DNA from: Haliotis asinina
Lineage: Eukaryota; Mollusca; Gastropoda; Lepetellida; Haliotidae
DNA: 64,000 nucleotides
Reading direction: 5' to 3'
NCBI RefSeq assembly: GCF_037392515.1
Contig: NC_090280.1
Span: forward strand, 20,460,618-20,524,617
Below the pieces are notes generated by a model, which did not search any database, was not told where the DNA came from, and was given only the letters and a program-made list of their open reading frames with translations. This document shows, piece after piece, positions 3,301 to 28,406 of the stretch; the stretch's first letter is position 1, and the number at the start of each line of letters is the position of its first letter. A program made the translations under genes and the position numbers.

Positions 3301-6300
3301 GCATACCCGACGTAGAACTTGATCCTGGTTCAGACCTTCCACTGCCCTTTGTATGATGCCTTCGACTGTTGTCAACACTGGAACAATCATCACGTAACAT
3401 CCTCAGCTCACATGGGTATTTACTCGATGTTTCAATCCTCAAACTGATAGTTTTGTGAAAGAGGGCAACACCATGTCCACTTGTATTACTATTAGCAATA
3501 TTCCAAGCAATATCATGGCAGGAGACAGCAAAAATGAGCTTCACACATGTGGGGAATCGAAACTGGGTTTTCGGTGTGACAGGCTAATGCTTTAACTTCT
3601 GGACTACCTCTGGACTACCCCCCGAACCCAACAATGACAGGGTGGTGAATAGTTTGATGTAAAAACCAACAGTCATACTTACCTCCCTTATTTGGCGGTG
3701 ACTCAAACTCAAGCTCTGGAATTGACACAGTGGCAAAATTTGTCTGCACTACTTGCCTATTTAAATCCTAGAAAAAAAAAAAATGAAATATTGTCTATGA
3801 AACTACTGACTCAGTTAAATTTTAGCGAATCAACTTGACCACAATACTTAAATCTGGAGATGTAGTTAGTCATATCTTGAATATAATGGATATGGTGTTA
3901 TCTATTTGCAGAAACTATACAGTATGGTCATGGTTTAATACATAACATGGACGACTGACTGTTACCGGGGTACAAATCAAATCTGTATATATATCATTAT
4001 TGATATTTTTAATATTAAATATGAAATGATAAACACAATCAATTTGAGACATCTGACAGACAAAACATGGAATGGTACGTGTTGTTAAATCAGAAGTTAA
4101 GTATTGTAGCATTTCAGAGCAAAACAAACAAAATAATCATCATGTCACGTATCACTGCCTGAAAACTCACAAAGCACTTTTGGAATAGTGTATCATTTCA
4201 TTACGTTTGTCAATGCAATAACTGGTTCCATAAACAAGGTCAGGAAGGGTGGGGAAAGGGGATGGGGGTTAGGTTCAGAGGAGATGGAGACAGTGTTGTT
4301 GGCAAGAGAGGGGTTGATGAGAGAGAGATTTGGGTCAGTGGGGTTGGTGTGGGGTTAGGGTATAGGAGCTTGGTAAGATTGAGAGGGATGAAGAGAGTGG
4401 GGTCAGGGTTGAGGGAGTTGGTATAAGCGTTGGAGAGAGTGGGGTTAGGGGAGTTAATGAGAATGTTGGAGAGAGTGATGTTAGGCAGTGAGTTGGTGGG
4501 AGGGTTGGAGTGAGTGCGGTTATGGTCAGGTGAGTTGGTGAGAGGGTTGGAGAGAGTGTGGTTAGGGTCAGGTGAGTTGGTGAGAGGGTTGGAGTGAGTG
4601 TGGTTAGGGTCAGGTGAGTTGGTGAGAGGGTTGGAGAGAGTGATGTTAGGCAGTGAGTTGGTGAGAGGGTTGGAGTGAGTGTGGTTAGGGTCAGGTGAGT
4701 TGGTGAGAGAGTTGGAGAGAGTGATGTTAGGCAGTGAGTTGGTGAGAGGGTTGGAGTGAGTGTGGTTAGGTTCAGGTGAGTTGGTGAGAGGGTTGGAGTG
4801 AGTGTGGTGAGGGTCAGGTGAGTTGGTGAGAGGGTTGGAGTGAGTGTGGTGAGGGTCAGGTGAGTTGGTGAGAGAGTTGGAGAGAGTGATGTTAGGCAGT
4901 GAGTTGGTGGGAGGGTTGGAGTGAGTGCGGTTATGGTCAGGGGAGTTGGTGGGAGGGTTGGAGAGAGTGTGGTTAGGGTCAGGTGAGTTGGTGAGAGGGT
5001 TGGAGAAAGTGATGTTAGGCAGTGAGTTGGTGAGAGGGTTGGAGTGAGTGTGGTTAGGGTCAGGTGAGTTGGTGAGAGGGTTGGAGAGAGTGTGGTTAGG
5101 GTCAGGTGAGTTGGTGAGAGGGTTGGAGAGAGTGATGTTAGGCAGTGAGTTGGTGGGAGGGTTGGAGTGAGTGCGGTTATGGTCAGGGGAGTTGGTGAGA
5201 GGGTTGGAGAGAGTGATGTTAGGCAGTGAGTTGGTGAGAGGATTGGAGTGAGTGTGGTGAGGGTCAGGTGAGTTGGTGAGAGGGTTGGAGAGAGTGTGGT
5301 TAGGGTCAGGTGAGTTGGTGAGAGAGTTGGAGGGAGTGATGTTGGGCAGTGAGTTGGTGGGAGGGTTGGAGTGAGTGTGGTTAGGGTCAGGTGAGAGAGT
5401 TGGAGAGAGTGATGTTAGGCAGTGAGTTGGTGGGAGGGTTGGAGTGAGTGTGGTTAGGGTCAGGTGAGTTGGTGAGAGGGTTGGAGAGAGTGATGTTAGG
5501 CAGTGAGTTGGTGAGAGGGTTGGAGTGAGTGTGGTTATGGTCAGGGGAGTTGGTGAGAGGGTTGGAGAGAGTGATGTTAGGCAGTGAGTTGGTGAGAGGG
5601 TTGGAGTGAGTGTGGTTAGGGTCAGGTGAGTTGGTGAGAGGGTTGGAGTGAGTGTGGTTAGGGTCGGGGGAGTTGGTGAGCAAGTTGAGAGGGTGGGGTT
5701 AGGGACGGGAATTGGTGGAGTAGGGTTAGATGAGATGTGGGTTGGATGTTAGATGTAGGTTGGTGAGATGTGGGCTGGAATCCAAAAGACTGATCCTTCA
5801 AACAAACTTAATTGCATTACACAAGGAAAGCAATGACAGGCTGAGTAAGGTAACTGTTCCACTCACTTCTTTGTGTTTGATAAGGACCTCATAACGCACT
5901 CCTCTGTCTTGTATCCTTCCACCAGGCTGTAGTTCCGCATTCCGATAACCACAGTGATCACAGGTGAATGAAGACACAATCACTTCTCGGAAAAATGGAA
6001 TCCTTGTTAAAAATAATCTTGTAGTGCCCTGAAAATAAAACAATAATGAACAGGTGAGAACAGGTGAAAAATACCTGCTTATTTCAACATGGCTGATCAA
6101 ATGAATTTTTTGAAAGGTGTTCAGAAGCCAAACAAAAATGAATATGTGACAAGCATTTACTTGATGAAGGAGCAAGAATAAAATCTGAAACATTATGTAA
6201 AGTTGTATTCCACAACTTCTAAAATGCCAATCAAACAGATCATATGTAGGGAATTATGATACTCCACTGACATCGACCTCTTTGGCAAAAAAAGATCAAA

Positions 6301-13827: not shown

Positions 13828-16800
13828 TCAACCCACGATGAGGCCAATGCCAAACCTAAACTGTGCCTTCACGTGGTTGGCATAGCCACTCAGAGCAAAT
13901 GTGAACGGGAAAGGCAGAAGTTTTTTCTCCATAACTGCTCCTATACACCAGTTTGTGTCGAACTGACCTGAAACATTAAAAACATTGTTGCAGTCGAAGA
14001 TGAGAGGTTGGTGCATCAGCAATGATGCATATCATCACAGAATGATGTTCTTTATGTCACTCACTGGATTGTCTGGTCCAGACCTGACTGATGACTGATG
14101 CTTCACAATGAGAGGTGACAAATGGCTGGTGGAACAGCACAAATAAAGGTACACCTGAGCACAGCCTGGTGAGACATCTCCAGGTTGTCAGGTGCCGTTT
14201 CATCAGCTGTTTGTCACCCCTTGTGTGAAGTGTGAAAATAGCACAATATTATATGATAGTTTCTTAAACAACTTCTTCTGTGATCGATTAGAAAAAACAT
14301 CAGATTACAAATCCTGTGGGGTTTAACTCTACCCTATAACCACAAACAGGAGAGCTAACATTCTCATGCAATAACCAAATTCATCCCTACCATGTGTATA
14401 TGTTCCAGGCAGTGTGTGAAATCAGGGATTTCATGTAATCCATACAGTCCACAATTCCATGTCAGTAAATGTGAAAGCAATATCGCTGTATGAATGTCAT
14501 CAAGTTAGGTGACAGAAATGTCAACAATGACTCACTGCCTAAGACTTGATAGTTATTATAGCATCTGTGAAAAAAACTATATTCACTTTTCAAAACACAG
14601 CTTGCCTCAGATGCTTTGACCTGCCCATTTATTCAGTGGGTTTAGCTACATTGCTGACAACTCAAACCATTTCTGCACAATCGTTGTTCTATACAGAGAG
14701 ACAATTTTCAATAGATGCGACATTACATTACAAGTGACACACAACATTATGGAGTGACAGAGTTCAGTTTTATGCCACACTCTGCAATATTCCAGCAATA
14801 TGGTGGCAATGTGTTGTTTGGAACAGACAATCAAGTAATCAACTGCATTAGCATCAGTCTTATTGGGATACAATGGCATGTATCAACAAAGTCAGCCTGC
14901 TTGAATTAGTCATCTCCTATGGCAAGCATGGGAGTAAGCTCTACGCTACGCTCGAAATAAATAAATGTTCAAGTCTTTTTTTCCAATCTGGATCAACATC
15001 ACATCAGAATAACCTACTCATGCTTAAAATAGCAAGTGAGCATTGAGCAATATTTCATCCATTATTGCTGTGAAATCTGGACAGGGCAAATTCAATCAGT
15101 GAAAGCATGAGCAACAAACCATCGAACACTTACCTCTAAACAGAACATTTGCATTAGGTATTTCTATTTGGTATCCTACAGTAGCCACACTTTCTTGCAT
15201 CCTTAAACTGGTCTCTAACTCAGCTCCTATTTGTAGAGTTTCATTAATTTTCTGGTAGTAGCAAGCATGCAGATTTCCTGCTAGTGGACTGACGTTTGCA
15301 CTTAATGCCCATTGGTCACCTGAAAAAAAACAACAACAAAGTTTCATTGGTCACCTGTAAAGCAACATAGCATCATTGGTCACCTGTAAAACACAGCATC
15401 ACTGATCACTTGTAAAACAACACAGTATCATTGGTCACCTGTAAAACACAACATCACTGATCACTTGTAAAACAACACAGTATCATTGGTCACCTGTAAA
15501 ACACAACATCACTGATCACTTGTAAAACAACACAGTATCATTGGTCACCTGTAAAAACTGTATCATTGGTCACCTGCAAAACAACATGGTATAATTGGGC
15601 ACCAGTATCATTGGCCCATACTGGCTTTCAGGGAAACTTGTCTTCTGAAATCAGTCTGCAGTATTCAAGCTTCACCAAAACAGATGATACAGATTGAATC
15701 AAGGCTGATAAAAACAACCAATGATTTGAAATATCATCAGTGGGAACGATCACTGGCAATTATTTAGTTGAATAAATTTAATTCTCACTCAGCTATTGAA
15801 TAATAAAATAAGTAGGTTACGTCTTCATTAATGGATTGCTTCTAAATTTCATTCAGGATATGTATGTGGTAACTGATCCAGTGAACTGCTTTGTTAAACA
15901 TTTTCTAAGATATACTTTTCCAATATTTATTGACAATTGATAACTTATCTCTGTGACTGATGTGATTTTGTGCCCAAGTTGGAAAGTTTATTTTCTATGT
16001 CAGTAGCATGCCACAACTTAGACAAAGACTAGTCTAAATAGTCTTAACAAAAATACCTCATGATTTCTAAAGTCTCACACCAACAGACAGTAAACAGTGC
16101 AGACTGTAGGAAAATGAGAGCAATGATCTTCATGGCCAAGAATTTATGGTCTAGACATAACCTCAGAGAGAAATTCTATTAACAGGATTTGCATACATGT
16201 GTTTTTCCACTTTTCAAATATCTGAATAACTGATCATACCGAGACAAGCAGATAGTGTCATCAACTTACGTGACAGAAATGTCAGTAGTGACTAACTGCC
16301 TAAGACTTGACCCTTTATATAGCATCCATCAAAAAAGCTAAGTTAAGACTTATTAATCCGATCCGATATATCCGATCATCTGCTTTATCTGACGCATTTG
16401 TTGGTAACAAATTGAATAAACGTAATTTAGTCTCATGTATTTAGTCCGACAGCCTTGTCAATCCAACACTTGTACAACAGACAATGTCGGATTAACAAGA
16501 ACTGACTGTATATTTACTGTTCAAAACACTGTTTGCCTCAGATGATTTGACTAGTATATTCTAAAAATCGTTTATTCCAAGTCATGTAACACACAGGAGC
16601 CTGGTCGTGTCAGTCGTTCAGTGAGAGTTGTTCTAGTAAGCGAGTCATCCTGTTCTCAATTCTGTTTCTTAATCAATCCTGAACCAATATCAATAATGAT
16701 TCATTTTCAACTGACCCGTGAGTCTGGCAGCTAGTGACAATATGGAGATCTCCTTCCCAGGAACCTGCTGGCCATATTGGTAGAGCAGCTCGGCACCCAG

Positions 16801-19800
16801 GTCCAACCGTGAGCTCACCCTCTGAAGGTACTGACCCACACATATCCCTGAAAAAAAAAAGACAGTCACTTCAGCAAAATAAACTACAAAAATGTAGTTT
16901 CAGAGTAAAACCATCTTATATTATACATATCCTGACTGATATTTAATTGCCTCTTTCTCACTGTCTCAAAATATAGGGAACGCTTCCTGTGTTCAGCCAG
17001 AACCCAAAAACATAACGCCCAAGCATGCCTCCGCCTGAACAGACCCTTTCTCTTACAAACGCACAAGAACCATGTAACCAAAAAGTTTCAACAAAAAGAA
17101 CGTTCGCTCAAAATCTTGTTCATATTGACAACAAAGGTTATTCATGTCAATACAAACCCATTCCGCCTCCATAACCTTCACAAAAATGGAAATCTAACTA
17201 CAAGCAGTCTTGATCGCATGTACATGTTCAAATTGTTCACACCTCATGCCAAAGACCAGGGTGCAATTTCCTACATGGATACAATGTATGAAGCCCATTT
17301 CTGGTGTCCCCACCATGATATTGCTGAAATATTGCTAAAACTTAATTCACTCAATCTGGCAGGACTAACATGGTCGACAGCTATGAAGACTTGATAGTTA
17401 TTATAGCATCTGTGAAAAAAACTATATTCACTTTTCAAAACACAGCTTGCCTCAGATGCATTGATTATTCATGTTCTATTTATTGATCAGTATCATTTTG
17501 AACTGGCAACAAGACAACAATCTACTGAAAATGTGAGAAGCTTTATACAATACAGACACAGTCTTCAGTGCACTGACTGTCATGGGCCCATGTTAAAGTA
17601 TGGGAGATATATAGCCTTTAAGGGTGGTCTTTGGTACGAGATCCTCTGTACACTCCTAAAGCCAGGTCACAGTCAGTTGAAGTTAAGCAAAGTTGGGTGC
17701 AGGAGTCCTTGGATGGGTGCCGTATTTGGCAGCATGACTCCTGATAGGTTGCAAGACTTCAGTCCTGCCCTTCAGCAAAGCACATGTGATATGTGTTGTC
17801 TCAAATTGGGCAAGTGAATATGTTAAAAAATTGCCTCTGTTCACCCAAGAGAAAATGAGTACCCAGTTTGAAAAGTAATTTGACTATAACCTTCTCACAT
17901 CTTACACAGGTTGGGCTATCTGGGGTTATCAGCTGGTAATGACTTTGTGATGCACTATATATTATTATGGGTAATCATTAGTGCTAGGATTGCAAAGGTA
18001 TAGGTTATATCATGGGAGTTACAATGATCTCAGTTCTACAATAGGGAATGTACTACCACCGACTGATATGGTTATATCATAAAGGGAGATATACACACCA
18101 CATCAAACCCATTGTTTTTTCTTTATGATCTGATGATACAGTTTTTAAGTTATTTATTATTCAGAAACAGACATGTCCTCAAGAGCGAAACAGACAATCT
18201 ACAATGACTGGCTGAATTAGGCTTGACATCTTCCTCTTGCACCTACAAACAGTCTGTATTCAAACAAAATAAACACAATTTGTTTGTTGTGATGCAAACA
18301 TGATAAGTTTCTTGTTATATGGTTAAATGCTTTGTTCATTATACTAAGCTGGAAGCCTAAATCACTGTTGTCAAGAAGTTGGACAGGGGTGCTTAATACT
18401 TACTACAATAAAGAATTCAAAGGGAAAAATTCATGTCACATATCTTGAAATCTAGGATAAGCAATGCACTCATCTGAAACATTTAACTGGTCAAGTAATG
18501 AGTGACTGAGAGTTTAGGTATATTCCAGCAATATCACAGCAGGGTACACCAGAAATAGGCTTCAAACATTGTACCCATGTGGGGAATCAAACCTGGGTCT
18601 TCAGCATGACAAGCAAAAACCTCAACCACTTGGCTACCACACTGCCCCAGTCTGAATGACAACACAAAGACACCTGAACATTCAACAAGTTGGTTGAGAT
18701 CACAATTCCGTCATCATAAAAGAGAGTTATTCTTTAATTGTAAACCAAAAGTTACTGTGTTCTGTAATCTGATTGGTTGAAAAACATGATCAAATGGTAT
18801 TAGATTCCCGGAAACTGCAAGACTATTCACTGCGTATTGACATGTAAACAATTGTTTTGTTGTGTCATCAACAGTGGTGATGTCATTCAAATCATATTGT
18901 GATGTAAAGTTAGAATGACGTCATTTTTGTTTACAATGTCGATCAACATCATGTGTTTGCCAATTTCCGGGTGTTATTGAGTATTTGAAGCACGCCGTCG
19001 GTTCCATATGCATTCCCGTGCTTCAAATACTCAATAACACCTGGAAATTGGCTAACACATTTTGTTTATCTCCATAATAGCTAAATAAAGTTATTTTCAA
19101 AGATTTAACTTGACATTTATCATTAAGAAAAAGATCTCCATTAGAGAAATTACATGTAACTTCATAAATGTCCTCAAGAGCGAAACAGACAATCAACAAT
19201 GACTGGCTGAATTAGGCTTGACATCTTCCTCTTGCATCTACAAACAGTCTGTATTCAAGTAATTAAATACAATTTGTTCATCATGATGCTTTTGTGAGAA
19301 CATATCTTTTTCAAATTTACTAAATCTTTAATTTGACTTGAGTCGCAGAACATTATTAAAAATTCAAACCTCCCCTACATCAGATTATTACAGTCAGTGA
19401 AAAATTGAAATGTTACGTTCAAATATTACGTGTGGTGGACAAATAAAAAATGAATTACACTCACTGTTGCGTGAAGCTTTGATGTGTGGAAATTACAGGT
19501 GTTTCTTAAAAAAGGTTCCACTGAATTCTGGTCATTGGTCAAACACTGGGTAACTCAAATCTTGAGTACCTACACAAGTCACTCCAACTGCACATGTAAG
19601 TTACATGAGGTTGTATGGATATCCTAGTGGTTAAAGCGTTACCTCATTACGCTGAATACCAAGGTTTAATTCCACATGGGTACAATGTGTGTCGCCCATT
19701 TCTGGCGTTCCCCTGCCATGATGTTGCTAGGATACTGCTAAAATCAGCACAAAACAAAACAAACTCATAGACAAAAACGTAGTGTCTTATCATACTAAGT

Positions 19801-22800
19801 CACTATTTATTCAATATGGTTGATCTGTTAATTAATAGTGTGAGCAAGTTTAGTTTTACACCACTGTTTGCAATATTCCAGCAAAATCGGATACCCGACA
19901 AAAGCTTCATGCACTGTACCCATTATCAATAAAGCCATACATACAGTGTTGAGCTCAACACCACAGGGCCATGCTCTAAGCCAATATAGCATGGATATTA
20001 TCAGCCTGAATAATCCATGTAGTCTGTGATGCTAGAAATTTAATATTCATGACTCACATCACCAGGCAGAAACACCTCTTTTCCGAGTGAACACAGGCAG
20101 TTTTGAACACACTCATTTGTCCAAGTAGAGACCATGTGTGCTTCATTGTGGGGCAGACCCGTGAAGGTCCCTGGGTAGAATAGGCCTTCAGCAACTAATG
20201 CTTGGCATTTAAGGCGACTATGCTTGTTGTATGAGGGGACTAATGGGATCGTGTGGTCAAGCTTGCTGACTTGGTTGACACATGTCATTGGTTCCCAATT
20301 GTGCAGATCAATGCTCATGCTGTTGATCACTGGACTGTCTGGTCCAGGCTCGATCATTTACAGACCACCGCCATAAAGCTGGAATATTGCTGAGTGCTAC
20401 ATAAACCTCACTCACTTACTCGCTGTGGGGCAGGATTGAACTAATAGAAACATTGCTTAACCTCGCCTGATTTGTGACCTCCACCAGATATGTCATAAAT
20501 GTCAGAGGATTATACCAGCTTTACACAAACTAAAAGGTCCAAGAAACCAGCAACGTTCTTGTTAATTGAACTGCCACAGAATAGTTTGGAGGGATAGACT
20601 TCATGCAAGATCCATCCATTTGTTGACACGTTATACTCAGAAAAAGTGACAGAGTATGGTGTGAGGTCGCTTCTAGCAATATTCCAGCAAAACCACAGCA
20701 GGTGACACCACACTGGGCCCATGCAGGGAATCGAACCCAGACCACCAGCATACTGAGCTAACATCTTGACCACTAGGTTACCCCATCGCTCCCAGTATTT
20801 CCACTACCTGATGGCAGCTTGTAAACAATCAAGTTACAGCCAGACTTAACAGTGATTTGTTGCCTTTTCCAAGGCAATGCCGGGTCCACTCAGCTTGTAC
20901 AAGGAAGTGAGTTTTGGTTTATGCCAATATTATTTTTAACAATATTCCAGCAATATCACAGCAGCGGCACGCTAGAAATATGCATCACATGTTGTACCCA
21001 TGTGGGGAATCGACCAAGGGCTTTAGTGTGACAAGCGAATGCCTTAACCAATAGGTTACCCAACAGGCTCTTGGAACAGAAGTGGGCTTCATATTGGGGA
21101 ACCTAAGTCTTGTATGACCTATAGTATCCCAGAGACGGGATCACATACAAACCTGATTCATTTACTGGATCGATGTTCCCTAATGTCAGCGATGATGTGA
21201 AATCTGAACCTTTGTAGTCTGTAGTTAGTTGTGAAGCTACACATTTATTATTTTGTATCTGAAACAGATAAGACAAATGCTTGTTTGTAACTTTTCTTTT
21301 GATGTTTACTGAGAAATATTTTATCTCTGTAGCAACAGTCTATCAGCAATTAAGTCTGGTTTCACTATGAAGCAATATATGGTGAGCCACATGCAACGTC
21401 TAAGGGTGCATATATAAATAAGTTTGAATGAGACAGTTTAGGAGGTTACAGAAAACAGATGAAACGATGGCAGCTACCATTTCAAATCAGGTGTTAGGCA
21501 ACCCACAAACTCTCATTCAAAACAAAGGACATCTATGCCTCCCTGGTATAAGTGCCGAGATGTCATTCTGAAAGCGTTGCATATGGTAGCTCTATAGTAG
21601 GATGGAAATTAGTAGTTCGACCATAAAAGTAGTAGTCAACTAAACAATTCAAATCATGATTGACTCTGAAAAAGATTAGATGATCCAAATAAAAAATGAA
21701 GCCATAATTTCACAATCTTCAAAGGCAAATTGCCTTAGCATCAGCTACTTGTCAGCATTTAGTACCTTTTATTGTTTTGCTTTTTTAGGGAAAATGTATT
21801 TAATTCACTAACATAAATGTTTTTGTCTACATATACAAATTTTAATGAATTGTCTTCAAATTTTGTAAAATTTCTAGTGCAATCACATTGGCATAGTGAC
21901 TACAAAAAAAAGGTAGAAACTGGCATTGGAAATACTGATGTCATCAAGTTAGGTGACAGAAATGTCAACAATGACTCACTGCCTAAGACTTGATAGTTAT
22001 TATAGCATCTGTGAAAAAAACTATATTCACTTTTCAAAACACAGCTTGCCTCAGATGCATTGACCTTGCGGTCACATTTCTTTGTAATGGTAGTGACTAT
22101 CAGAACATCAACACACGTTAACCATGGATACCAGTTTTGCACACTTAAAGTGTCCCCGATGTTTCGTTCGAAGTCTGGGACCTCTGAAATCTTTATCAAC
22201 ATCAGGTTCATGTTGAGATCTTTATCTTCCATGAGTCCACTAACCTATATCAAAACCACTCCCCCCTCCGAATGGTTTAGTTAAAAAATTAAACTGAATT
22301 GAACAGTATTCCAGTTACTTCATTGTTAGATCTGCGAAACATTTCAGTAACATTTATTCAACACTTTAGGTGAGTCATTGAGTTCAGTTTACATCACACT
22401 CAGCATTATTCCAGCTAAATGGTGGCTGTAAAGATTCAAGTCTGGACCAGACAATTCTGTGATCAATAGCATAAGCATTTATCAGCACAATTGAACTAAT
22501 GACATTTGTCAACCAAGCCAGTGAGTCTCACTACATGATCCAGATAGTCGCTTCAAGCGACAAACATGGGCTACTGAAGGCCAGTATTCTAACCCAGACC
22601 TTCACGGGTCTCACCATTTCAAACACTGGAAATGTACTCCACTTTGTTATATCAAATTATGATATAACTGTCCTTTTGTAAAATATGGATGTCATCAATT
22701 TAGGTGACAGAAATGTCAATAATGAAAGTTATAGCATCTTTGAAAGAAACTATATTCACTTTTCAAAATGCAGCTTGCCTCAGATGTACTGCACAATTCC

Positions 22801-25800
22801 TAGTTATGTCAGGTTAATTGTGGAGGAAGTGTCTGAAGTGATGCAGGATTTAGATGTCTATCATGAACATATGAGGATGGAACTTATGACCTATCAAACC
22901 AAAAAAACAAAACCGGTACTAACTGGGATTCAAACCAACAATTACAAGTACCTGGCTTGGGGTGAAACAGTACCTTCATACCACGGTATGGTCGATATTG
23001 TGGTACAAAGCCTGCGGTTCAGTCCATTGGCCAGTCGGTTGGGCATATGAGATATGGTAACACAGAAAACTGACAAGAGCCAAACCGATAAAACATAAAA
23101 TTTGATATTATGAAAGACCAAAACTGCCTTCTTATGACTGAATAGAAATGATGGCAAGAAAACCAAAAATATGGATATTTTTTACTACATAATGGCATAC
23201 CAAAACCAAAGGCAAAATACTGTGGTTCTGCAATTACTGTGGTACAACATTTTACCGCTATTTCTGACATGCCAAAGTGTAACTGCAGCTTGGTAAACTG
23301 CTTCCTGAGGAAATGTGACATGACCTCCTCAGTCAAGATCTGCTGGGTCTTTTCGCATGTCTCTAGTTAGAAATATTGGAAGCATAAAGTTCCCCATCAT
23401 AACACTCAAATAATTCTATTACTAGGCAGAAGCACTTAAAAGTATTTGAATGTCATTTGGAACTGATACACATGAAAGGTGAGAATTTGGGATGTGGAAC
23501 TTTTTTTTATAATGAAGGAACATAACACCTGACGAAGGAGTAGGAACAAATTAATTCACACCTTTAGAAGCAGGATCTTTTGCATTTCATTGATAACAAA
23601 ACAGTTATTAGGCCTACCAAAGAAACTTTCAACTGGACAGAAAAACACAGAAGAGATAACATCAATCATGGAAATAGCAACATGAACATCTTCCTTCGCT
23701 ACTGAAACAGTGAAACAGCAACGAAAGACTAAAGACACTGCAACATTTTTTTGTCAGTGAACTCTGACCTCCACTGCGCATTAAGATCTGCGCTTCTTAC
23801 ATTTTCCAAGCAACCTTGAATCACCTTGAGTAGAAAAAGTATTGAATATGTCATAATAATTGCCATCAATCATTTCATACAAATGGAAAGTAAACTAAAT
23901 AAGTATGAACACAAGTATGATGAAGATAAATGCCAAAATAAGTCAACAGAAATACTTCTATAAAGAGAATGTAACTCTTGTCCAAGTTGGAAAATGACAA
24001 CATGAGGTAGACTTCTTCCATGTGTGCATACACAGTATTAAGTTGCAGGCTCTTTGTATTGATCCAGTTTTAGAGACTTACTGTTGCCATTTTCACTATT
24101 TCACTTGCGAAAGATCATATGTTCATAATATTAAGATGCCCAGGGTTCAGAAACAAATTTAAAATATATATTCCCAATATTTAGGCAATGACAAAGACAT
24201 CTTATTCAGTTTAAAGACATAACAATAGCCAGCCAGTAAAGGTCTTCACCGAATAAAGTAATTTTGAAACATTGAAACAGGAAATCTCATTCATTATGAG
24301 CATAGGCTAAAATAGGCAAACACTTGGTATGTTCTTCGCTTTTGGTGATCCTATTTATAATACATCAAATCAATGCAATGTTACGTAGAGTGTCTACAGG
24401 ACCATAGTAAACTACATCACGCGTATTATATCATTATGCCCTCTTGGATATGTTATTATACAATCACTGAGGGACCAATTTATTAAAAAATTACCTCAGC
24501 ACTCTGATTGTCTGTGGCTAGACGATCATGTAATCCAAGAAATAAAAATCTTATTTCAGATTATACATTTCTAGAAAAACATAAAACCAAAATCATCAAT
24601 CAGCTGGTCAAATTATCCTTCACTTTGAGTGTTACTGGGAGTTAGGTAAAATCACTTTGTGTAATGGACCAAGTGTTACAGCCCTTGCTTACTGGAGGAC
24701 ACATAAATGGAAAGTAGAGCTGGGTTCATTAAAAAGTCAGAATTAAAACCATGACATACTACTTTCCAAGGGAGGTAACTGCTTACCTGTGCTACAACTT
24801 TGGCTCGTATTCGATCTGATAGTGCATGAATTATGTTTGCATTGAGGTTGCCACTTGCATCTATGTCGCCAATTATCAGAGGAAATGCCTGAAACATGAA
24901 TTACATGTAAAACAAATGTTGTTAACAAGGAAAGAAAATCAAGAGAGTTGACGCCAACCACACATCAACATTAAATAGCCATGTTTGGTTACAAAATGTA
25001 TGGCTGGTTTAGTTCCTTGGTTTGTTGTTTAACATTGCACTCACAATATTCCAGCGATATGCCAGAACTAAGTTTTGACCACACAATCCAGTGATCAACA
25101 CCATGAGCATCGCTCAACAAAACTGTGACACAACTGTGATATGATGATGTGTCAACAAGTCTAGGTTGCTGCAGGTCGATTCCAGCCCAATCTTCATGGG
25201 TGCTGAAAATATTAATCCCTTCTGCTGAATAATAAACAATTGGTCACTGGTCAACACTGATTTACCTGTCAACATAACTACTATGCCTATCTGTGCCATG
25301 CATGACACATAATTGATACTTTTATTAATGATAAGTTTATAAGAAAATGAGAAACTAAAACATACAGTGTCATCAAGTTAGGTGACAGAAATGTCAACAA
25401 TGACTCACTGCCTAAGACTTGATAATTATTATAGCATCTGTGAAAAAAACTATATTCATTTTTCAAAATACAGCTTGCCTCAGATGCTTGGACAATATGT
25501 TCTATTTAGTCTTCACTTTCAACGCCTGTAAATATCTTAAGTCTTGACCACACAATCCAGTGATTGACATTACAAGCATTGATATGTTCAATTAAACTGC
25601 CTTGATGGGTACAATGCGGTAAGCCATTTCTGATGTACCCTGCCGTAACACTGCTGCAATATTGCTGAATGTGGCATAAAAACATACACACTCACCTCAA
25701 GAATGTAGCCCCTTTGTCCCACTTAAAAATAAACCCTGGCTGATCATTGTTCTAAACTTGCCTCTGCAGGACCTAGCTGCTTTGTTCCAACATATGTGCA

Positions 25801-28406
25801 GCCAAATCTGTATGCCGAGGGTTGGAACGTGGAGAGGGAGAGGGTGTGGCTTATTTGGAAATGACTGCTCAGACCCTTAGAGATGATAAGTTTCCCACCT
25901 TCAAAGATTTGTGGAAACAGATCTGAAAAAAAGAACAAAGATGGATGTAATAGTCTTTTGAAGACGTCAACTTGTTGTAGCTTAGGGTTTATCGTCAACA
26001 TTCAAACCGTGAATCCAGGGGCTGACCACATGAGTTCTATGGAGAGGTTCATTATTACAACTGATTGCTGATCCAAAACTGCATATTGTGAGCTATGATC
26101 AGCGCTGTGAGCGAGTTTAGTTTTATGCCACACGTAGCAATAATCCAGCTATATGGCAGCAGTCTGTAAAGAATAGAGTCTGGACCAGACAATCCAGTGA
26201 TCAACAACATCGATCTGCGCAACTGGGAACCGATGATATGTGTCAACAAAGTCAGCGAGCCTGACCACCTGATCCCGTTAGTCGCCTCTTACGACATGTA
26301 TAGTCACCTTTTATGGCAAGCATGGGTTGCTGAAGGCCTATTCTACCCCGGGACCTTCATGGGTCGATCAGCACTGTGAATAATAAATAATTTATGATAT
26401 ATCTAATAATGATAAATTTACAAGAAATTGAGAAAATGAAACAGAAATCATATGTTATCAAATTAGGTGACAGAAATGTCAACCTTGACTCACTGCCTAA
26501 GAGTTGATAGTTATTATAGCATCTGTGAAAAAAACCATATGCACTATTCAAAACACAGCTTGCCTCAGACGCTTTGTTCTTTTATGTTATATTCAGTCTT
26601 TATGTTCACAGACAGTATATTATCAAGTAATAACCCATCAATCCAGTGACTGATACAGGAGCACTAACATGAATATTTGCGGACATTTTGTGAAGCAGAA
26701 AGTCTAAGGGCACATGCAGCTATAAAGTATCATGCATGTTACAGTCCTACTGTCCCTGAAACAAAATTACAAAATGTTTTGCCATAAACAAGCGTGCTGG
26801 TCTTGACTACAGTTTCCTTGTGAAAGTATGCCCAACTGAAGAGAACTAATACACCAAGTAATGTTTGAATGCACAATTGCTTTTGTTCACCTTGTGATAT
26901 TGTGACACTTAACCTTTTCCTAAGATCATTTGGAAGAAGTTATCAGAAGAATGAACTTTACCCACACATAACTGTGGACGTTAAAAACATCACCTGCACA
27001 ACAGTCAATATCTAGCCAAACCATAACATGTTTAAAACAGTTTCTCAGCATGGAAAACTTCAGACAAGATAGTCGTCTTGCGAATCGGAGACCCAATCCT
27101 CTATCGTTTGTCAGAGGACTTGAATGATTGTTGATAATAATCAAAATACATACATTTTTAATGTAACCACCAATTTCAAGGGATTAGCCCTTGTTTTTTT
27201 AATCAAATTGATGTTGTTTTTTCTTTTAACTACAACTGTCATGCAATGAAAGACTTGCATGCAAGATCAAATATTTATCATTATGTCTAATCATGATAGA
27301 TGTACCATTGAATACACTGGTTCCAATAATACAACTGCAGTGATGAATCTAAAAACATAAACACAATGCACAGGACTTCATGCTGTTGAGTTTGTTCGTG
27401 AGTATGCAAATTTTTTGTGAATATAATGTATTCATCAACTTTAATGATGAGTTTACTTCATTCAACTTAAACCAAAACAACCAAATACTGATTAATCGAA
27501 AATATTTTTTTCAACAATTGATAATACCTTTTCATCGTTCTTTCAAGAAAATTTTTGATCATCAGAACACCACTTCCATGGTGCTAGACCACTGAAATGC
27601 TGAAGTTGAACAAGGACCCTGAGCTAACCAGCTTCTGCTTAATACCTTTATGAAGAGGACGGGTATCCATGGTAACTAGAAGTATGATGAGTACTAGGGT
27701 TGCACAGTATTAACTGATATATGTAAACTGGACAAGAGAAAATAGAATCCTTAAAAATGGGTTAGGATTAAACCACCAACCTTTACTCTCCACCCACCAC
27801 GTAAATGGAGGCAGTTGTTGAACAAATGATGACAAACACGGTGCATGTGTGTCCAAACTTACAAATAATACAATCTAAGTGTGCAGCATTTTCATGGACC
27901 AGTTCAGAGAATGTGACGAAATTGGGAAAAAATACGTAAATCAAAATGACAAATATCAATAGTTTAATCAGTTATGAAGGATGCTGACTGGGTGGAATAA
28001 TTACCATTTCAATGGTGAAATAACAAAACTGGTTTTGCGTCAACCAGGGGTTGCATTAAGTTCTAAAAGCAGGATCAGAAACAAATAAAATGACTAAGTC
28101 AGAGTGATCTCCCTTCACTAGCAGACTCCACGTGCATGCTGAATCGCTGGGGAAAACCGCCTTAACCTTCTACAGATAGAGACGATGGCACCAAACGGTT
28201 ATGTATTCACTACCTTTACACTTTTTATGTAAATCTTCAAACGTCCCCGGGCCGTTGTCACCCCCTAGAGGAGATGATACAGGCTCCGAAGTTGCAGAAG
28301 ACGAAGTCGAAGGTTGTTCGGGTGCCGGTGGTGGGGGCACGATGTCGGGAGATGGCACATTCACAGCCGCAGCTGGTCGCGGACCAGCCGCCAATACACT
28401 ACCCAT
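13828..28406 (-). CDS. TOMM40: TOM40, mitochondrial import channel (seven exons, complete)
   Basis: Coding exons are 28214-28406, 25762-25922, 24787-24888, 21153-21258, 16716-16847, 15134-15319 and 13828-13967, giving 339 residues (human 361). The start MGSVLAAGPRPAAA matches the family's MGNVLAA start. A Pro/Ser-rich tail (residues 1-50) precedes GTFEDLHKKCKDLFPQIFEG, and the Porin_3 beta-barrel fills the rest. Family landmarks are GLSSHFQISHT, YVGTKQLGPAEAFPLIIGD, DYKGSDFTSSLTLGN, YGQQVPGKE, LHACYYQKINETLQIG, VGYQIEIPNANVLF and the final QFRFGIGLIVG. TOM40 forms the outer-membrane pore of the TOM complex, through which nearly all nuclear-encoded mitochondrial precursors pass. One intron has a GC donor. 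All six introns carry a shared local repeat. No breaks are seen and the copy looks functional. Confidence 0.97.
14496..14620 (+). repeat. TOMM40-intron repeat, copy 1 (intron 6)
   Basis: A roughly 120-bp unit: GTCATCAAGTTAGGTGACAG, then AATGACTCACTGCCTAAGAC, CTGTGAAAAAAACTATATTC and AGCTTGCCTCAGATGC. This copy is complete. Confidence 0.9.
15323..15610. repeat. Tandem array derived from the 3' splice site of TOMM40 exon 6
   Basis: About nine units follow the exon edge, each about 27-30 bp. They read ATTGGTCACCTGTAAAACAA or the variant ACTGATCACTTGTAAAACAA. On the TOMM40 strand six units carry ACAGGTGACCAATG (one CAGG variant), repeating the real junction CAG/GTGACCAATGGGC. Spacing is not regular enough, and there are no unique spacers, for any other kind of array. 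Confidence 0.85.
16257..16551 (+). repeat. TOMM40-intron repeat, copy 2 (intron 5), interrupted
   Basis: The most diverged copy. Its first part is 16257-16335 and its end lies near 16508-16551, with about 165 bp of other sequence between. Confidence 0.75.
17276..17350 (+). repeat. SINE family A, 3' part
   Basis: GGATACAATGTATGAAGCCC, the body, and ATTGCTAAAACTTAATTCAC. Confidence 0.7.
17387..17464 (+). repeat. TOMM40-intron repeat, copy 3 (intron 4), 3' two thirds
   Basis: Starts at AGACTTGATAGTTATTATAG and is otherwise almost identical to copy 1. It lacks the first 45 bases or so. Confidence 0.85.
17560..17790 (+). repeat. 5S-rRNA-headed SINE (copy 1)
   Basis: GAAGTTAAGCAAAGTTGGG (17680-17698) and CCTTGGATGGGTGCC (17707-17721) match the 5S rRNA internal promoter (box A region and box C) with the right order and spacing. 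The rest is unlike 5S rRNA, and the 3' side (GCAGCATGACTC ... CAGTCCTGCCC) matches a second copy near 50110-50215. This fits a 5S-derived (SINE3-type) retroposon and not a 5S gene. Outer ends are approximate. Confidence 0.75.
18172..18263 (+). repeat. Direct repeat, left copy
   Basis: ATGTCCTCAAGAGCGAAACA to AGTCTGTATTCAA, about 92 bp. It matches 19168-19259 with about two differences. Confidence 0.85.
18500..18649 (-). repeat. SINE family A copy
   Basis: Nearly full length: GAGTGACTGAGAG tail, body, GGGGAATCAAACCTGGGTC (box B in complement), CTTGGCTACC. Confidence 0.8.
18959..19052. repeat. Long hairpin (36-bp arms, 22-bp loop)
   Basis: Arm 18959-18994 (GCCAATTTCC...TGAAGCACG) and arm 19017-19052 are reverse complements with one mismatch. 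The loop is CCGTCGGTTCCATATGCATT plus two bases. It lies between the two direct repeats and may be part of a fold-back element. Confidence 0.85.
19168..19259 (+). repeat. Direct repeat, right copy
   Basis: Second copy of 18172-18263. Weaker similarity goes on for another 30 bases (ACAATTTGTT..TC/GT.ATGATGC). Confidence 0.85.
19612..19750 (+). repeat. SINE family A copy, forward
   Basis: The tRNA-like head reads forward (TATCCTAGTGGTTAAAGCG ... GGTTTAATTCC), then the body; there is no ACTC tail. Confidence 0.75.
19838..19930 (-). repeat. SINE family A, tail and body fragment
   Basis: GAGCAAGTTTAGTTTTACAC and CAATATTCCAGCAAAATCGG. Confidence 0.65.
20154..20420 (+). repeat. SINE family B, full-length copy
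   Basis: One of the best family-B copies. Head CAGACCCGTGAAGGTCC; middle with TTGGTTGACACATGTCATTG and GTTGATCACTGGACTGTCTG; end with GCTGGAATATTGCTGAGTG and CTCACTCACTTACTC. Confidence 0.85.
20655..20792 (-). repeat. SINE family A copy
   Basis: Body with TAGCAATATTCCAGCAAAAC, box-B complement GGGAATCGAACCCAGACC, CACTAGGTTACCCCA. Confidence 0.75.
20908..21068 (-). repeat. SINE family A copy
   Basis: Body CAATATTCCAGCAATATCAC, then TGTGGGGAATCGACC and CCAATAGGTTACCC. It ends about 85 bp from TOMM40 exon 4 (21153). Confidence 0.75.
21939..22064 (+). repeat. TOMM40-intron repeat, copy 4 (intron 3)
   Basis: Complete and nearly identical to copy 1 by eye. Confidence 0.9.
22370..22612 (-). repeat. 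SINE family B copy, reversed
   Basis: GTGAGTCATTGAGTTCAG tail, CTGGACCAGACAATTCTG, GAAGGCC and CAGACCTTCACGGGTC at the head end. Confidence 0.75.
22690..22787 (+). repeat. TOMM40-intron repeat, copy 5 (intron 3), internally deleted
   Basis: Second copy in the same intron. A block between the ATGTCAATAATGA part and TTATAGCATC is missing. Confidence 0.85.
25016..25120 (-). repeat. SINE family B fragment, reversed
   Basis: CACAATATTCCAGCGATATG, CACACAATCCAGTGATCAAC, CCATGAGCATCGC. Confidence 0.6.
25368..25493 (+). repeat. TOMM40-intron repeat, copy 6 (intron 2, the GC-AG intron)
   Basis: Complete. Similarity to copy 7 continues about 50 bases to the left (AATGATAA...AAGAAA..TGAGAAA). Confidence 0.9.
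26105..26366 (-). repeat. SINE family B, nearly full-length, reversed
   Basis: From GTGAGCGAGTTTAGTTTTA through CTGGACCAGACAATCCAGTG and GCAAGCATGGGTTGCTGAAG to GGGACCTTCATGGGTC. Confidence 0.85.
26453..26576 (+). repeat. TOMM40-intron repeat, copy 7 (intron 1)
   Basis: Complete, with a few substitutions. It shares the left flank with copy 6. Confidence 0.9.

What the first reader, a model, noticed from the sequence alone, without database searches (positions are those of the whole stretch)
13968..28213. All six TOMM40 introns contain the same 120-bp repeat in one orientation
Seven copies (14496, 16257, 17387, 21939, 22690, 25368, 26453) fall in introns 6, 5, 4, 3, 3, 2 and 1. All are on the plus strand, most are nearly identical, and I saw none in the other 50 kb. 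Random insertion of a dispersed repeat should not give one per intron in a single gene. On the TOMM40 strand each copy contains TTTTTTTCACAG/ATGC, a strong acceptor-like site, and an open frame of about 40 codons. Local duplicative spread, gene conversion or a selected intronic element are all possible.
Basis: seen in the sequence. Interest (0 to 1): 0.82.

Follow-up and report, generated by a model that had tools for sequence, protein, structure and literature searches.

The report
Seven-copy snoRNA family in TOMM40 introns
The repeated 120-base unit in every intron of this mitochondrial import gene looks like a small RNA gene of a known type that guides chemical editing of ribosomal RNA, copied from intron to intron inside one host gene.

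Summary
Seven copies lie in all six TOMM40 introns, on one strand, and a DNA search of the 1.14-Gb genome finds one more, on another contig.

The unit is most likely an H/ACA box small nucleolar RNA gene. On the TOMM40 strand it folds as hairpin, H box (AUAAUA), hairpin, ACA plus 3 nt. The eighth copy lies in sense in an intron of ribosomal protein L12. Among five intact copies the 3' guide pocket and ACA do not vary, and stem changes tend to keep pairing. The 3' pocket, 14 nt before ACA, pairs with this genome's own 28S rRNA at CAGGUG[U]CCUAAGGC. Four TOMM40 copies are intact, three broken. Two diverged relatives with other pockets lie in intron 4.

The acceptor-like motif (5 of 7 copies) and open frame look like by-products; the L12 copy lacks both. 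Xenopus U17 in all six introns of a ribosomal protein gene is a direct precedent. New member of a known kind; expression untested.

The parts
26450..26575 (-). family A H/ACA snoRNA copy, intron 1, boxes and 3' pocket kept, stem pairs 24-35 and 74-115 (alignment columns) broken
   Evidence: z -1.1; 141.9 bits
25365..25490 (-). family A H/ACA snoRNA copy, intron 2, intact
   Evidence: z -5.0; 151.6 bits
22687..22790 (-). family A copy, intron 3, broken: two internal deletions remove part of the hinge and one arm of the 3' hairpin
   Evidence: z -0.6; 61.5 bits
21936..22061 (-). family A H/ACA snoRNA copy, intron 3, intact
   Evidence: z -3.6; 151.5 bits
19164..19292 (-). family B, diverged H/ACA-like relative, intron 4 (AGAGGA in the hinge, ACA tail, other pockets)
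   Evidence: 29.6 bits, E 1e-4; z -2.6
18169..18297 (-). family B, second copy, intron 4
   Evidence: 17.8 bits, E 0.03; E 0.11; z -1.9; 91% identical to the other
17376..17462 (-). family A copy, intron 4, broken: 5' hairpin and hinge only; 79 nt identical to the intact intron 3 copy
   Evidence: z -1.7; 76 bits
16253..16550 (-). family A copy, intron 5, broken: 5' hairpin split by a dispersed repeat at about 16341-16508
   Evidence: 40 matches scored of 430 candidates; 39 besides itself, in the insert part; 58.9 and 17.7 bits for the two pieces
14492..14617 (-). family A H/ACA snoRNA copy, intron 6, intact
   Evidence: z -4.0; 154 bits
28214..28409 (-). TOMM40 exon 1 (from just before the start codon), host gene
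25762..25922 (-). TOMM40 exon 2
24787..24888 (-). TOMM40 exon 3
21153..21258 (-). TOMM40 exon 4
16716..16847 (-). TOMM40 exon 5
15134..15319 (-). TOMM40 exon 6
13828..13967 (-). TOMM40 exon 7 up to the stop codon

Best explanation
The unit is an intron-encoded H/ACA box snoRNA (family A). It is spliced out with TOMM40 introns, trimmed to about 125 nt, and assembled with the dyskerin complex (inferred from its class). Its 3' pocket pairs with 28S rRNA at CAGGUG[U]CCUAAGGC and directs pseudouridylation of that U (predicted). The family was found once in RPL12 and seven times in TOMM40, where it spread from intron to intron: introns 1 and 2 by DNA duplication that carried flanks, others with no flank shared. 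Three TOMM40 copies have decayed. Shown: copy number at DNA-search sensitivity, strand, predicted structure, boxes, conserved 3' pocket, complementarity to the genome's own 28S. Inferred: transcription, processing, the modified base, direction of spread.
For: Genome search: 8 places, 7 in TOMM40 introns and 1 in an RPL12 intron, 8 of 8 in host sense. Fold: hairpin-hinge-hairpin-tail with z -4.0, -3.6 and -5.0 in three copies. Variable columns: 0 of 9 in the 3' pocket, 0 of 3 in ACA, 1 of 10 in the 5' pocket, 2 of 6 in the H box (both at free positions of ANANNA), against 3 of 3 in the tail and 5 of 12 in the apical loops. 97.9% of 190 cells paired; 34-48% when partners are slid by 1-3 columns. 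19 stem changes break 4 pairs against 9.3 expected at random, 0.0003 of 20,000 placements as low. Right guide CACCUAA starts exactly 14 nt before ACA in five of five intact copies; with the left guide it pairs 5 + 7 nt with 28S, the one match of that pocket in the 760 nt of this genome's rDNA scanned. On recalled 28S stretches 0 of 1000 shuffled pockets match as well at that spacing. No recalled 18S or U1, U2, U4, U5, U6 site reached 9 pairs for it.
Against: No RNA data. Best Rfam match is SNORA54 at 27 bits, far below its 60-bit cut-off, and the L12 copy matches no family at E 1 or better. The shuffle test of covariation is not significant, the copies being too alike (34 of 500 shuffles reach the percentage paired, 204 of 500 the double changes, 166 of 500 the score). 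The intron 1 copy folds poorly (z -1.1). Two of the 7 left-guide pairs use lower-stem bases, so 5 + 5 is the pairing with that stem kept, and one upper-stem pair must open. With spacing left free the hit exceeds the 95% level but not the maximum of 200 shuffles (28.7; 26.4; 33.8). At 13-nt spacing a different 28S site is best (21.7, 12 of 1000 shuffles). Five other 9-11-pair sites for this pocket turned up in 3 of the 8 contaminant contigs, whose content is not all rRNA. None of those 8 contigs holds the site core TGTCCTAAGG, but none holds the probe for the neighbouring conserved loop either, so conservation of the site was not really tested. No convincing target for the 5' pocket. The own-genome search takes no RNA model, so distant copies may be missed.
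Confidence: 0.92

Rival explanations
1. A non-autonomous mobile element (SINE or MITE) with a taste for this gene, without RNA function of its own.
For: Three copies are truncated, deleted or split, and dispersed repeats abound in the same introns.
Against: 8 places found in 1.14 Gb, 8 of 8 in host sense; the intron 3 and intron 6 copies share nothing detected in 150 nt of flank on either side, bar about 5 bases next to the RNA; the invariant parts are the ACA box and a pocket complementary to 28S.
Confidence: 0.03
2. It is an snoRNA, but most TOMM40 copies are reverse-transcribed insertions (snoRNA retrogenes), not DNA duplications.
For: The intron 3 and intron 6 copies differ at 3 of 127 columns yet share no detected flank; a study of human families argues that H/ACA copies arise mostly by retrotransposition (PMC8178906, passages).
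Against: Introns 1 and 2 share both flanks (scores 68 and 69, 0 of 200 shuffles each), which points to DNA duplication; no A tail is seen by eye beside the RNA ends in the flanks printed (target-site duplications were not tested); 7 of 8 in one gene is not what random retroposition gives. Gene conversion among introns is an alternative.
Confidence: 0.25
3. A cis-acting intronic element: a splicing, circular-RNA or exonisation signal selected in TOMM40.
For: At least one element in each intron; acceptor-like motif on the gene strand in 5 of 7 copies.
Against: Also found in RPL12; 3 of 7 copies broken; distance to the 3' splice site varies from 476 to 1428 nt; conserved columns are the snoRNA tail box and pocket; the L12 copy lacks the exact motif.
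Confidence: 0.02

Closest known systems
Xenopus laevis U17 (U17XS8) snoRNA
   Same: An H/ACA snoRNA transcribed from all six introns of one protein-coding host gene (PMC7601244, passages read; the original 1994 paper is not held)
   Different: Host there is a ribosomal protein gene; U17 serves 18S processing, not pseudouridylation (abstract); no Rfam U17 match here. Here 3 of 7 copies are broken and two relatives with other pockets lie alongside
Clustered snoRNA paralogues formed by intragenic (cis) duplication in vertebrates
   Same: Paralogues in different introns of one host, guide regions kept, some copies with changed guides (PMC2653536, passages)
   Different: In human only 7.3% of H/ACA families keep all expressed members in one host (PMC8178906, passages); the family here is H/ACA and nearly confined to one host
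SNORA54 (Rfam RF00430)
   Same: Overall H/ACA architecture, 27 and 25.2 bits to two copies
   Different: Below the 60-bit cut-off; by eye the pockets in the alignment do not correspond

Membership tests
H/ACA box snoRNA | hairpin, single-stranded hinge, hairpin, short tail | tested here: met
   four intact copies give this fold, z -4.0, -3.6, -5.0, -1.1; the RPL12 copy was not folded alone but keeps most of the pairs
H/ACA box snoRNA | H box ANANNA in the hinge | tested here: met
   AUAAUA in the four intact TOMM40 copies, AUAUCA in RPL12
H/ACA box snoRNA | ACA 3 nt from the 3' end | tested here: inconclusive
   ACA invariant in 5 of 5; the true 3' end needs RNA data
H/ACA box snoRNA | pocket complementary to rRNA or snRNA, target U about 14 nt before the box | tested here: met
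   3' pocket: exactly 14 nt, 28S CAGGUG[U]CCUAAGGC. 5' pocket: no target found
H/ACA box snoRNA | intron-encoded in host sense (usual in animals) | tested here: met
   8 of 8 copies
H/ACA box snoRNA | expressed and bound to dyskerin, NOP10, NHP2, GAR1 | not testable with these tools
   no RNA or binding data
SNORA54 | Rfam gathering score 60 | tested here: not met
   27 and 25.2 bits
small Cajal body RNA (scaRNA) | CAB box (UGAG, recalled) in an apical loop | tested here: not met
   UGAG falls at a stem-pocket border and in a stem, not in a loop, and the second site is absent from RPL12 (with the structure)
U17/snR30 | match to the Rfam family | tested here: not met
   not listed at E up to 5

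The most novel reading that the evidence does not exclude
TOMM40 in this animal has become a nursery for modification guides: a 28S guide also housed in RPL12 entered a mitochondrial import gene, was amplified there with turnover, and gave rise to a second guide (family B) with rewritten pockets and a different target, so that ribosome modification and mitochondrial protein import are served by one transcript.
Probability: 0.2. Interest if true: 0.55.

Novelty: new member of a known kind. Interest (0 to 1): 0.4.

Why it matters
It gives an H/ACA guide family that no Rfam model recognises at its cut-off, with a predicted 28S target and a record of spread, decay and possible change of guide inside one gene. 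It also shows how a strange-looking intronic repeat can be explained by RNA structure. How guide RNAs gain copies and new targets could be tested here in related species. The arrangement itself is known from Xenopus U17.

Tried and rejected
Dispersed element, coding frame and acceptor-site readings were tested and rejected. No unit reached a Rfam cut-off. Targets for the 5' pocket of family A: none better than shuffled pockets at fixed spacing (603, 601 and 346 of 1000), score 24.8 against a 95% level of 25.1 with free spacing, none in the genome's own 28S stretch. Family B 3' pocket: a lead at 28S AAAGCGAA[U]GAUUAGAGG, 8 of 1000 shuffled pockets as good at a 13-nt spacing, but 318 of 1000 at 14 nt and below the 95% level with free spacing (26 against 28.8); I do not claim it. 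The RF00002 hit is a 56-bit match and the 28S pieces are fragments, not whole rDNA. In the flank test 10 of 56 pairs of flanks had 4 or fewer of 200 shuffles as good (about 1 expected): besides introns 1 and 2 (both sides), the 3' flanks of the broken intron 3 copy and the intron 1 copy align (score 78, 0 of 200), through a stretch that also recurs elsewhere in the gene (pair I1), so I read it as a dispersed repeat; the other 7 are weak. Paper searches: TOMM40 as snoRNA host (2 papers), abalone snoRNA, mollusc snoRNA guides, SNORA65 with RPL12, target letters: nothing relevant in the listings, and these are the only basis for saying that I saw no report.

Full report
Observation. They lie in all six introns of TOMM40, which runs on the minus strand; the intron limits come from splice-site mapping and the spliced protein matches TOM40 chains, best E 5.6e-111. 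The stated refutation was hundreds of copies genome-wide. A DNA search of the 1.14-Gb genome with one copy had 8 candidates and all 8 matched: 7 in this gene and 1 on contig C14. A covariance model, run on the window and on 10.9 kb around the C14 copy, lists 11 rows at E up to 5: these 8, the second piece of the split intron 5 copy, and two diverged relatives in intron 4.

What it is. Read on the TOMM40 strand, the unit folds as two hairpins joined by a hinge with AUAAUA and ends in ACA plus 3 nt. This is the H/ACA snoRNA architecture. z-scores are -4.0, -3.6 and -5.0 for the copies in introns 6, 3 and 2, -1.1 for intron 1, and -0.6 and -1.7 for the two broken copies folded. The C14 copy lies, in sense, in an intron of ribosomal protein L12 (read; the downstream exon matches chains named L12 at E 2e-26). 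Ribosomal protein genes are classic snoRNA hosts (recalled).

Constraint. Among five intact copies, variable columns are 0 of 9 in the 3' pocket, 0 of 3 in ACA, 1 of 10 in the 5' pocket, 2 of 6 in the H box (free positions of ANANNA), 5 of 12 in the apical loops and 3 of 3 in the tail; the stems have 16 of 77 in all. 19 stem changes relative to the consensus break 4 pairs; random placement of the same changes breaks 9.3 on average and reaches 4 or fewer in 0.0003 of 20,000 trials. Rows share some changes, and the structure was derived from these sequences, so this p is optimistic. The shuffle test of covariation is not significant.

Target. The right guide CACCUAA begins 14 nt before ACA in five of five intact copies. 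With the left guide it pairs 5 + 7 nt (5 + 5 if the lower stem stays closed; one upper-stem pair must open) with ACGCAGGUG[U]CCUAAGGCGAG. That sequence occurs in this genome's own 28S rRNA downstream of GTTTGACTGGGGCGGTACA, and is the one match of that pocket in the 760 nt scanned. On recalled 28S stretches 0 of 1000 shuffled pockets match as well at that spacing. With free spacing the hit is above the 95% level but below the maximum of 200 shuffles, and at 13-nt spacing another site is best, 12 of 1000. The 8 contaminant rDNA contigs hold neither TGTCCTAAGG nor the neighbouring loop probe, and 3 of them show five other sites of 9-11 pairs; they do not settle conservation. I do not recall this U as a pseudouridine in yeast or human. 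The 5' pocket has no convincing target.

Copies and history. Four copies are intact. The intron 4 copy keeps only the 5' hairpin and hinge, the second intron 3 copy has lost part of the hinge and of the 3' hairpin, and the intron 5 copy is split by a repeat with many other genomic matches. Copies in introns 1 and 2 share both flanks (0 of 200 shuffles each), so DNA duplication is likely. The intact copies of introns 3 and 6 differ at 3 of 127 columns and share no flank detected in 150 nt on either side, bar about 5 bases next to the RNA, which fits gene conversion or retroposition. The RPL12 copy differs from the intact TOMM40 copies at 21 to 28 of 127 columns. Direction of movement between the hosts is not shown.

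A second family. The model also finds 19166-19292 (29.6 bits, E 1e-4) and 18171-18279 (17.8 bits, E 0.03) in intron 4, same strand; the second is no stronger than the stray piece at 16433-16548 (17.7 bits) and rests mainly on its likeness to the first. They are 91% identical over 122 nt, and a genome search with one finds only these two. Each has a GCAUC...G(A/G)UGC hairpin, a hinge with AGAGGA, a second hairpin and ACA. Apical loop and lower stem resemble family A, the pockets do not. This is most simply a paralogue with a new guide; its folds are weaker (z -1.9, -2.6), no Rfam H/ACA family is listed for it at E up to 2, and its target is only a lead.

The acceptor-like TTTTTTTCACAG/ATGC, exact in 5 of 7 copies, is the 3' side of the 5' pocket and lower stem. 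The open frame is broken in all three frames of the RPL12 copy.

Known background. In Xenopus laevis the H/ACA snoRNA U17 is transcribed from all six introns of a ribosomal protein gene (PMC7601244, passages). Cis-duplication of snoRNAs between introns of one host is described for vertebrates (PMC2653536, passages). In human, 7.3% of H/ACA families keep all expressed members in one host (PMC8178906, passages). So the arrangement is known but uncommon for this class.

Verdict. An ordinary class of gene in an uncommon arrangement: new member of a known kind, interest 0.4. On re-checking I lowered the main confidence from 0.93 to 0.92, for the 13-nt and free-spacing target controls.

Noticed in passing
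window 18169-18297 and 19164-19292 (-): Two copies of a diverged H/ACA-like relative in intron 4; a genome-wide DNA search finds only these two.
   Followed up: yes
window 18936-19075: Foldback with 59-nt arms, 88% complementary, 22 nt apart; matches to several microRNA precursor families far below their cut-offs, probably a foldback element.
   Followed up: no
window 15335-15607: 55-bp minisatellite, about five units, just inside the 3' end of intron 5 next to exon 6.
   Followed up: no
window 4481-5589: The 13-mer ACTCACTGCCTAA appears ten times on the minus strand at spacings of 81 to 196 bases, several of them 81 or 123: a likely tandem array outside TOMM40.
   Followed up: no
window 16341-16508: Dispersed repeat inserted in the intron 5 copy; 39 other genomic places among the 40 scored of 430 candidates.
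   Followed up: partly
window introns 1, 4 and 6: Distance from the matched RNA end to the 3' splice site is 527, 528 (broken copy, end uncertain) and 524 nt; intron 2 gives 476, the others 677 to 1428. May be chance.
   Followed up: no
window 27500-27594 (-): Weak match to nematode H/ACA family ceN36-1 (22.4 bits, cut-off 48, E 3.2) in intron 1, probably chance.
   Followed up: no
L028 4810-5016, L029 4880-5144 (own genome C4, C18): Isolated 28S rRNA fragments of 207 and 265 nt around the helix 69 region; a 28S query had 33 matches over the genome. Possibly carried by mobile elements.
   Followed up: no
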